A stretch of DNA of 64,000 nt, taken from NCBI RefSeq assembly GCF_006716785.1, contig NZ_VFPQ01000001.1:1674001-1738000 (forward strand), in the 5' to 3' direction. Shown piece after piece: positions 23,925 through 25,872 of the stretch. The position numbers were made by a program, and so were the translations under genes. Source of the DNA: Thermopolyspora flexuosa (GTDB taxonomy: Bacteria; Actinomycetota; Actinomycetes; Streptosporangiales; Streptosporangiaceae). Each line of letters starts with the position of its first letter. Within the stretch, counting starts at the first letter, position 1. The notes under the pieces were generated by a model that saw only the letters and a program-made list of their open reading frames with translations, did no database searches and was not told the origin of the DNA.

Positions 23925-24171
23925 GATCTTGGTGCGAAAATTTTCTGCCAACGATTGACAAGTTTCGGGCACTCCTCGCGCTCGCTCTATGCATGGCCCG
24001 CCGATCGCGCGGCGGTATGCCGGCCGGCGGGCGTAATCCGATGCCATTCCGATGCCATTCCGATGCCATTCGGGGGTGTGCGCCTGCGGGCGCGGCGTCG
24101 ATCCCGCGGGGACTCCCGCGGTTTCCCCCTCCGTGTCCCCTAATGGGCGCTCAGGCATGGGCGTGAACGCC
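23925..24171 (+). repeat. Duplicate (relic) copy of xylanase promoter, leader and first codons
   Basis: This block aligns with 24182-24408. Shared elements in order: GATCTTG, CGAAAnTTTTC box (23935-23947), TTGACAAGTTTCG, an 8-bp hairpin (23996-24003 with 24025-24032), GCCATTCGGGGG and a long identical GC-rich stretch with hairpin CCGCGGG-GACT-CCCGCGG (24104-24121), and ATGGGCGTGAACGCC (24157-24171). The relic lost the GGAGG ribosome site and its frame ends after 19 codons. It carries three 11-bp CGATGCCATTC repeats where the functional copy has one. Confidence 0.9.
24039..24071 (+). repeat. Three tandem 11-bp units CGATGCCATTC
   Basis: Three exact copies at 24039-24049, 24050-24060 and 24061-24071. 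The second leader copy has a single related unit (CGACGCCATTC). The two extra units explain the length difference between the two leader copies. Confidence 0.9.
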
Positions 24172-24216
24172 CAACCGCTCCGATCTTGTGAGCGAAACTT
24201 TTCGGCAGGCTATTGA
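24157..24216 (+). pseudogene. Truncated 19-codon start of a second xylanase reading frame
   Basis: ATGGGCGTGAACGCC encodes MGVNA, identical to the xylanase N-terminus, then diverges at codon 6 and stops at TGA 24214-24216, whose last two bases lie in the functional promoter's TTGACA. No ribosome site precedes it. It is best read as the remnant left by the leader duplication; a regulatory small reading frame is less likely. Confidence 0.7.
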
Positions 24217-24393
24217 CAAGTTTCGTGAATGTTTCCCACACTTGCTCTGCAGACGGCCCCGCCGATCATGGGTGCACCGGTCGGCGGGACCGTGCTCCGA
24301 CGCCATTCGGGGGTGTGCGCCTGCGGGCGCGGCGTCGATCCCGCGGGGACTCCCGCGGTTCCCTTTCCGTGTCCCTCTAATGGAGGCTCAGGC
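24182..24393 (+). promoter_or_regulatory. Functional xylanase promoter and structured leader
   Basis: CGAAACTTTTCGG box at 24193-24205, then TTGACA at 24213-24218 as likely -35, with a weak CACACT -10 candidate at 24237-24242. The leader can form three hairpins: CCCGCCGA/TCGGCGGG (24258-24265 with 24281-24288), GCGCC-TGCG-GGCGC (near 24318-24331), and CCGCGGG/CCCGCGG (24341-24347 with 24352-24358). GGAGG at 24382-24386 is the ribosome site. The same three hairpins can form in the relic copy. Confidence 0.65.
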
Positions 24394-25872
24394 ATGGGCG
24401 TGAACGCCTTCCCCAGACCCGGAGCTCGGCGGTTCACCGGCGGGCTGTACCGGGCCCTGGCCGCGGCCACGGTGAGCGTGGTCGGCGTGGTCACGGCCCT
24501 GACGGTGACCCAGCCCGCCAGCGCCGCGGCGAGCACGCTCGCCGAGGGTGCCGCGCAGCACAACCGGTACTTCGGCGTGGCCATCGCCGCGAACAGGCTC
24601 AACGACTCGGTCTACACCAACATCGCGAACCGCGAGTTCAACTCGGTGACGGCCGAGAACGAGATGAAGATCGACGCCACCGAGCCGCAGCAGGGGCGGT
24701 TCGACTTCACCCAGGCCGACCGGATCTACAACTGGGCGCGCCAGAACGGCAAGCAGGTCCGCGGCCACACCCTGGCCTGGCACTCGCAGCAGCCGCAGTG
24801 GATGCAGAACCTCAGCGGCCAGGCGCTGCGCCAGGCGATGATCAACCACATCCAGGGGGTCATGTCCTACTACCGGGGCAAGATCCCGATCTGGGACGTG
24901 GTGAACGAGGCGTTCGAGGACGGCAACTCCGGCCGCCGGCGCGACTCCAACCTCCAGCGCACCGGTAACGACTGGATCGAGGTCGCGTTCCGCACCGCCC
25001 GCCAGGCGGACCCCTCGGCCAAGCTCTGCTACAACGACTACAACATCGAGAACTGGAACGCGGCCAAGACCCAGGCGGTCTACAACATGGTGCGGGACTT
25101 CAAGTCCCGCGGCGTGCCCATCGACTGCGTGGGCTTCCAGTCGCACTTCAACAGCGGTAACCCGTACAACCCGAACTTCCGCACCACCCTGCAGCAGTTC
25201 GCGGCCCTCGGCGTGGACGTCGAGGTCACCGAGCTGGACATCGAGAACGCCCCGGCCCAGACCTACGCCAGCGTGATCCGGGACTGCCTGGCCGTGGACC
25301 GCTGCACCGGCATCACCGTCTGGGGTGTCCGCGACAGCGACTCCTGGCGCTCGTACCAGAACCCGCTGCTGTTCGACAACAACGGCAACAAGAAGCAGGC
25401 CTACTACGCGGTGCTCGACGCCCTGAACGAGGGCTCCGACGACGGTGGCGGCCCGTCCAACCCGCCGGTCTCGCCGCCGCCGGGTGGCGGTTCCGGGCAG
25501 ATCCGGGGCGTGGCCTCCAACCGGTGCATCGACGTGCCGAACGGCAACACCGCCGACGGCACCCAGGTCCAGCTGTACGACTGCCACAGCGGTTCCAACC
25601 AGCAGTGGACCTACACCTCGTCCGGTGAGTTCCGCATCTTCGGCAACAAGTGCCTGGACGCGGGCGGCTCCAGCAACGGTGCGGTGGTCCAGATCTACAG
25701 CTGCTGGGGCGGCGCCAACCAGAAGTGGGAGCTCCGGGCCGACGGCACCATCGTGGGCGTGCAGTCCGGGCTGTGCCTCGACGCGGTGGGTGGCGGCACC
25801 GGCAACGGCACGCGGCTGCAGCTCTACTCCTGCTGGGGCGGCAACAACCAGAAGTGGTCCTACAACGCCTGA
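24394..25872 (+). CDS. xyn10A: Secreted endo-1,4-beta-xylanase, GH10 with CBM13
   Basis: 492-residue secreted hemicellulase. A long signal peptide with a basic start (RPGARRF) ends near residue 45 (PASA-AAS). The GH10 catalytic domain spans about 48-345: [10 protein letters not shown] contains acid/base Glu172 and VEVTELDIE nucleophile Glu280; [13 protein letters not shown] is also diagnostic. A Gly/Pro/Ser linker (349-368) leads to a ricin-type beta-trefoil CBM13 at 369-492 with three QxW repeats (NQQW, NQKW, NQKW). It cuts internal beta-1,4 xylan bonds. The leader region is duplicated upstream and carries CGAAAnTTTTC boxes, so induction by xylan products is likely. Confidence 0.97.

What the first reader, a model, noticed from the sequence alone, without database searches (positions are those of the whole stretch)
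23925..24408. Tandem duplication of the xylanase promoter, leader and first five codons
Two consecutive copies of about 230-250 bp share operator box, TTGACAAGTTTCG, three hairpins and ATGGGCGTGAACGCC. The upstream copy lost GGAGG and stops after 19 codons, the downstream one drives the real gene. Such a partial duplication could double operator dosage, act as a decoy for the regulator, or be a scar of gene amplification.
Basis: seen in the sequence. Interest (0 to 1): 0.6.

Follow-up and report, generated by a model that had tools for sequence, protein, structure and literature searches.

The report
Doubled xylanase promoter, upstream copy dead
A soil-type actinobacterium carries two copies in a row of the control region of a xylan-digesting enzyme: the nearer copy drives the gene, the farther one has lost its promoter but kept its repressor-binding site, and the region encodes a conserved folded RNA leader, shared with other plant-fibre enzymes, that is absent from the RNA family library searched.

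Summary
The duplication is real: 23925-24182 and 24183-24408 match at 94% over the last 113 nt and about 70-80% before that. It is not an assembly artefact. The copies differ, and the arrangement recurs: two units in a MAG (ZC4RG28), three in another genus, one in a single-copy relative; no other of 341 family genomes has it.

The downstream unit is the working promoter (box, TTGACA, 18 nt, CACACT, GGAGG, ATG of a GH10-CBM13 xylanase). In the three species, upstream units have lost the -10 and evolve fast (56-77% identical; flanking genes 92-95%). Yet their operator and half-box are kept (25/26 columns against 93/185 elsewhere, p=2e-6). The box resembles the published site of BxlR, the xylobiose-responsive LacI-type repressor. 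Best reading: a dead promoter retained as a distal operator.

The 'three hairpins' led further. The leader belongs to a structured RNA with covariation, absent from Rfam, found in 72 of 297 family genomes before GH10, GH62, GH95, cutinase-like and esterase genes. In this window it is a divergent member. Its function is inferred, not shown.

The parts
23873..23882 (.). Farthest BxlR-type box (GAAAGTTTTC); an equivalent box lies at the same place in the single-copy relative
23925..24182 (+). Upstream unit (u1): decayed copy of promoter and leader
23936..23945 (.). Operator box of u1 (GAAAATTTTC); CGAAAATTTTCTG is identical in u1 of all three species
23955..23967 (+). TTGACAAGTTTCG of u1 (former -35 plus half box); no -10 at 17-18 nt
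   Evidence: scan finds no consensus promoter
24028..24100 (+). Remnant leader RNA of u1 (model R1, 21.7 bits), including the 11-bp triplication 24037-24071
24157..24216 (+). Vestigial 19-codon ORF of u1, no GGAGG, ends in the -35 of u2
24183..24408 (+). Downstream unit (u2): working promoter and leader of the xylanase gene
   Evidence: 88-91% identical in three relatives
24194..24203 (.). Operator box of u2 (GAAACTTTTC)
24213..24242 (+). Promoter of u2: TTGACA (24213-24218), 18 nt, CACACT (24237-24242)
   Evidence: TTGACA-N17-CACACT in 18 of 20 orthologues and a variant -10 in the other two
24252..24337 (+). Structured leader RNA (P1 and P2), a divergent member of the family (29.4 bits)
24341..24358 (+). 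Third hairpin (P3, CCGCGGGGACTCCCGCGG)
   Evidence: not conserved in sequence across the family
24382..24386 (+). GGAGG ribosome-binding site
24394..25872 (+). Secreted GH10 xylanase with CBM13 (ricin-type) domain, 492 aa

Best explanation
The control module of a GH10 xylanase gene (LacI-type repressor box, promoter, structured 5' leader, start codons) was duplicated in tandem in an ancestor of a few Streptosporangiaceae. The unit next to the gene remained the working promoter. The other lost its -10, ribosome site and reading frame, but purifying selection kept its operator (CGAAAATTTTCTG and AAGTTTCGG). It most likely works as an extra, distal operator about 260 bp upstream that raises local repressor concentration or allows looping, giving tighter repression without xylobiose. 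The active unit is transcribed with a roughly 150-nt folded leader belonging to a conserved RNA family that fronts several hemicellulase genes and probably adjusts translation or stability of these mRNAs. Shown: duplication, recurrence, promoter loss, selective conservation of the operator, RNA covariation, gene association. Inferred: which repressor binds, looping, what the RNA does.
For: Same array in three genomes with 2, 2 and 3 units, one unit in a single-copy relative. u1 units lack the -10 region and are 56-77% identical to each other, while the active unit is 88-91% and flanking genes are 92-95%. Operator and half-box columns of u1: 25/26 invariant against 93/185 elsewhere, Fisher p=1.9e-6; no such contrast in the active units, p=0.46. 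u1 boxes differ from u2 boxes, so conversion does not explain their identity. CGAAACTTTCG is the published BxlR site in streptomycetes (PMC4743123; PMC12772271). In this genome the exact palindrome occurs three times, one beside a LacI-family gene and one before a sugar ABC transporter operon. Several boxes upstream are usual in single-copy orthologues too. Leader RNA: covariation and gene association.
Against: Only three u1 sequences support the conservation test, and the test block was chosen after looking at the alignment. Boxes in this clade are one base longer (GAAANTTTTC) than the published palindrome. No binding or transcription data exist. The distances between boxes (258, 228, 227 and 237 bp) show no constant helical phase. 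One of the three genomes is a MAG whose contig could be misbinned.
Confidence: 0.58

Rival explanations
1. Neutral scar: u1 is a decaying by-product of a tandem duplication with no function; its 3' part in this species looks fresh because it was recently homogenised by the downstream copy.
For: u1 is fast-evolving overall and promoter-dead. In this genome the last 113 nt are 94% identical to u2 while u1 in the other species is about 66-73% identical to its own last unit. Two bases found in WIN_u2 but not in other active units are also in WIN_u1. G013 has two near-identical decayed units, showing ongoing turnover.
Against: Operator and half-box are conserved in u1 far beyond the rest (25/26 against 93/185).
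Confidence: 0.27
2. Two working promoters: u1 is also transcribed, giving a longer mRNA with two leader RNAs in tandem or a 19-aa leader peptide.
For: P2 of u1 folds like P2 of u2 in this species; the leader hairpins are well preserved here; read-through from the upstream MFS gene is possible, since no terminator-like site was found between the genes before P3.
Against: No -10 in u1 of any of the three species; -35 also degraded in G013 u1 and u2 (TTGATA, TTAATA); no GGAGG in this window's u1; ORF absent in G013.
Confidence: 0.07
3. Decoy: u1 mainly titrates the regulator.
For: The operator is what is kept.
Against: One extra site changes the number of sites in the genome little; exact boxes already occur at three other loci.
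Confidence: 0.05
4. Assembly artefact.
Against: Copies differ, and the same array occurs in independent assemblies.
Confidence: 0.01

Closest known systems
BxlR operator of streptomycete xylan genes (CGAAACTTTCG; PMC4743123, PMC12772271)
   Same: Palindrome GAAA-N-TTTC before GH10 xylanase genes; a LacI-family gene and a sugar ABC operon in the same genome carry it
   Different: Here one base longer in each xylanase copy, placed just before the -35, and duplicated with promoter and leader; binding not tested
Auxiliary operators of LacI-family repressors such as E. coli lac (general knowledge)
   Same: A distal operator upstream of the one at the promoter
   Different: Here it arose by duplication of the whole promoter-leader module followed by promoter death; looping not shown
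msiK leader RNA (RF01747, Actinobacteria; PMC2864571)
   Same: Structured 5' leader in Actinobacteria tied to complex-sugar use; a long hairpin with a conserved bulge of similar size (11 nt there, about 10 nt here)
   Different: msiK motif is found before msiK genes and is in Rfam; the present leader has no Rfam match, has GUGGUG in P1 loop and P2 bulge, and fronts secreted hemicellulases

Membership tests
BxlR (LacI-type) regulon | Palindromic site CGAAANTTTCG at the promoter | tested here: inconclusive
   GAAANTTTTC at 23873, 23936 and 24194, one base longer than the published site, and no exact CGAAANTTTCG in the window; most orthologues have GAAANTTTC before TTGACA; published site from PMC4743123
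BxlR (LacI-type) regulon | A LacI-family regulator in the genome with the same site, and a sugar ABC transporter with it | tested here: met
   LacI-family gene beside box 1482467, SBP plus two permeases behind box 1771054. Orthology to BxlR itself not established
BxlR (LacI-type) regulon | Binding of the regulator, released by xylobiose | not testable with these tools
   Needs gel shift or footprint
Tandem duplication | Two homologous units in direct order, outer flanks like the single-copy relative | tested here: met
   region before u1 resembles that before the single unit of G040, region after u2 is the gene
Known Rfam RNA family | Score above a family's gathering threshold | tested here: not met
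Structured cis-regulatory leader RNA | Compensatory base changes in the proposed helices | tested here: met
   105 two-sided cells against 40.0 in shuffles (0/500) on a fitted alignment; P2 also recovered de novo on an unfitted alignment with C-G 22 / U-A 20 at one pair; weaker on 17 sequences. P1 rests mainly on the fitted alignment
Structured cis-regulatory leader RNA | Position in the 5' leader of functionally related, non-homologous genes | tested here: met
   GH10, CBM2-GH62, GH95, CBM2-PETase-like, esterase; transcript starts inferred from the conserved promoter only
Structured cis-regulatory leader RNA | Effect on expression of the downstream gene | not testable with these tools
   No expression data available

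The most novel reading that the evidence does not exclude
The leader is an undescribed class of cis-regulatory RNA (two hairpins, each presenting GUGGUG) that coordinates translation or stability of a whole set of secreted hemicellulase mRNAs in Streptosporangiaceae, on top of repressor control; in this clade the DNA module carrying it was also tandemly copied and its upstream copy turned into a stand-alone operator.
Probability: 0.45. Interest if true: 0.72.

Novelty: new variant of a known kind. Interest (0 to 1): 0.5.

Why it matters
It gives a small natural series (one, two and three units) of one promoter module in close relatives, in which a promoter was silenced while its operator was kept, so the making of a distal operator can be followed in sequence. 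The leader RNA adds a possible post-transcriptional layer to control of secreted xylan-degrading enzymes, genes used widely in industry, and points to the members to test.

Tried and rejected
Assembly artefact: rejected. Dispersed repeat or mobile element: no other genomic copy. Known Rfam element: none. Similar tandem modules in other GH10 orthologues: self-comparison of upstream regions gave convincing cases only in the three genomes; weaker repeats at other loci, with about 141-nt period and further upstream, were taken for repeats inside a neighbouring coding sequence (not followed up). Leader peptide from u1: ORF not conserved in G013. P3 as terminator or attenuator: weak T-run, not conserved across the family. 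Pairing of the P2 bulge with a downstream CGCACAU: seen by eye in some species only. Second leader in this genome at C1:960370: lies inside a thiolase-like reading frame, judged chance. Exact pattern box plus TTGACA in the own genome: no match, because the boxes here are one base longer. Gene conversion in this species: likely, but the diagnostic bases are few and the alignment near them is ambiguous in G001.

Full report
Observation. The two copies are there. Repeat search and alignment put the upstream unit (u1) at 23925-24182 and the downstream unit (u2) at 24183-24408. The 3' 113 nt are 94% identical (E 1.9e-42), the 5' parts about 70-80%. No other place in the 5.77-Mb genome comes close. 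The gene is a secreted GH10 xylanase with a CBM13 domain.

Not an artefact. Searching 100 relatives and then 341 genomes of the family found the same arrangement in G001, two units (its 11,903-base contig has the length of contig QGUZ01000143.1 of the MAG ZC4RG28), and in G013, three units. G040 has one unit. In 79 GH10 loci with named organisms, self-comparison of upstream regions showed a convincing tandem module only in these three genomes.

What happened to the upstream unit. In 20 orthologues the promoter is TTGACA, 17 nt, then CACACT (18 of 20) or CAGACT/CAAACT, followed by 137-168 nt up to the start codon. u2 fits this with an 18-nt spacer. In u1 of the window, G001 and G013 no -10 is left at this distance. 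G001 and G013 share a gap of about 11 nt there, and the window shares the adjoining GGGCACTC with G013. GGAGG is lost in the window and in G013. Pairwise identity among first units of the three genomes is 67-77% in the 5' part and 56-72% in the 3' part, against 88-91% for the active unit compared with the window and 92-95% for flanking coding DNA. Against this decay, the box and the ATTGACAAGTTTCGG stretch are invariant in 25 of 26 columns, versus 93 of 185 elsewhere (p=1.9e-6); the active units show no such contrast. The u1 box (CGAAAATTTTCTG) is the same in all three species and differs from the u2 boxes, so it was not copied over from u2. The window's u1 is a mosaic: its 5' part is nearest to u1 of G013 (77%), its 3' part to its own u2 (94% by BLAST).

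Which regulator. CGAAACTTTCG is described as the binding site of BxlR, a xylobiose-responsive repressor of streptomycetes; deleting bxlR raised expression from the xysA promoter in S. lividans by up to 70% (PMC4743123). SirexAA-E pull-downs point to the same protein and a near-identical motif (PMC12772271). In the window's genome the exact palindrome occurs at three loci, one next to a LacI-family gene and one before a sugar-binding protein with two permeases. Orthology to BxlR was not established, and the boxes at the xylanase are one base longer than the published site.

The hairpins. The leader is more than incidental structure. Across single-copy orthologues it keeps two hairpins: P1 with GUGGUG in its loop, and P2 made of GACGCC, a 5' bulge with GUGGUGU, an inner stem of varying sequence, and GGCGUC. 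A covariance model (R1) found it in 72 of 297 family genomes, up to four per genome. Beyond the training set it hit at the expected place in Actinomadura, Actinoallomurus and one Streptomyces orthologue; all 19 hits of a 460-kb search (four of them training sequences or close to them) lay at the leader position on the coding strand. Downstream genes are GH10 xylanases, CBM2-GH62 arabinofuranosidases, a GH95 enzyme, a CBM2-linked PET hydrolase-like protein and an esterase. Covariation on 47 distinct sequences is strong (105 two-sided cells, 40.0 expected, 0 of 500 shuffles), but that alignment was fitted to the structure; on an unfitted alignment P2 is recovered de novo and P1 is not. Rfam has no match. 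A search of 394 genomes of the class found matches only in the family. In the window's clade GUGGUG is altered, and the model scores only 29.4 (u2) and 21.7 bits (u1).

Mechanism. Shown: tandem duplication, recurrence, loss of promoter and translation signals in u1, selective conservation of its operator, conserved RNA leader with covariation. Inferred: that a BxlR-like repressor binds the boxes, that u1 acts as a distal operator by raising local concentration or by looping, and that the leader regulates translation or mRNA stability. Box-to-box distances (258, 228, 227 and 237 bp) have no common helical phase, which speaks mildly against rigid looping.

Limits. Three u1 sequences is few; one comes from a MAG; no expression or binding data were available. 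The literature search covered open-licence papers only; no description of this leader was found there, which does not prove that none exists.

Noticed in passing
L108-L157 (family-wide), e.g. L108:1501-1593:-, L121:1501-1596:-, L146:2083-2182:-: Conserved two-hairpin leader RNA with GUGGUG in both hairpins before GH10, GH62, GH95, PETase-like and esterase genes; no Rfam match.
   Followed up: yes
L167:7273-8406 with box at L167:8468 (G000:C1:1482467): LacI-family regulator with CGAAAGTTTCG and CGAAAGTTTTC beside it: candidate BxlR of this genome.
   Followed up: partly
L168:499-3857 (G000:C1:1771054): Sugar-binding protein and two permease genes behind CGAAATTTTCG: candidate xylo-oligosaccharide importer.
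   Followed up: partly
window 24037-24071: Perfect 11-bp triplication TCCGATGCCAT inside the dead upstream unit, between P1 and P2.
   Followed up: partly
L022 (G013:C2:1836697-1837137): Three-unit array whose first two units are 98% identical in the 3' part, so unit number still changes.
   Followed up: partly
L010 and L011/L022: Last unit of G001 and of G013 (different genera by the tool's labels) are 99% identical in the 3' part, closer than G001 to the window in the same genus; possible transfer or misbinned contig.
   Followed up: partly
L145:21-116 and L145:2050-2141: Two leader RNAs on the same strand about 2 kb apart, perhaps neighbouring hemicellulase genes each with its own leader.
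   Followed up: no
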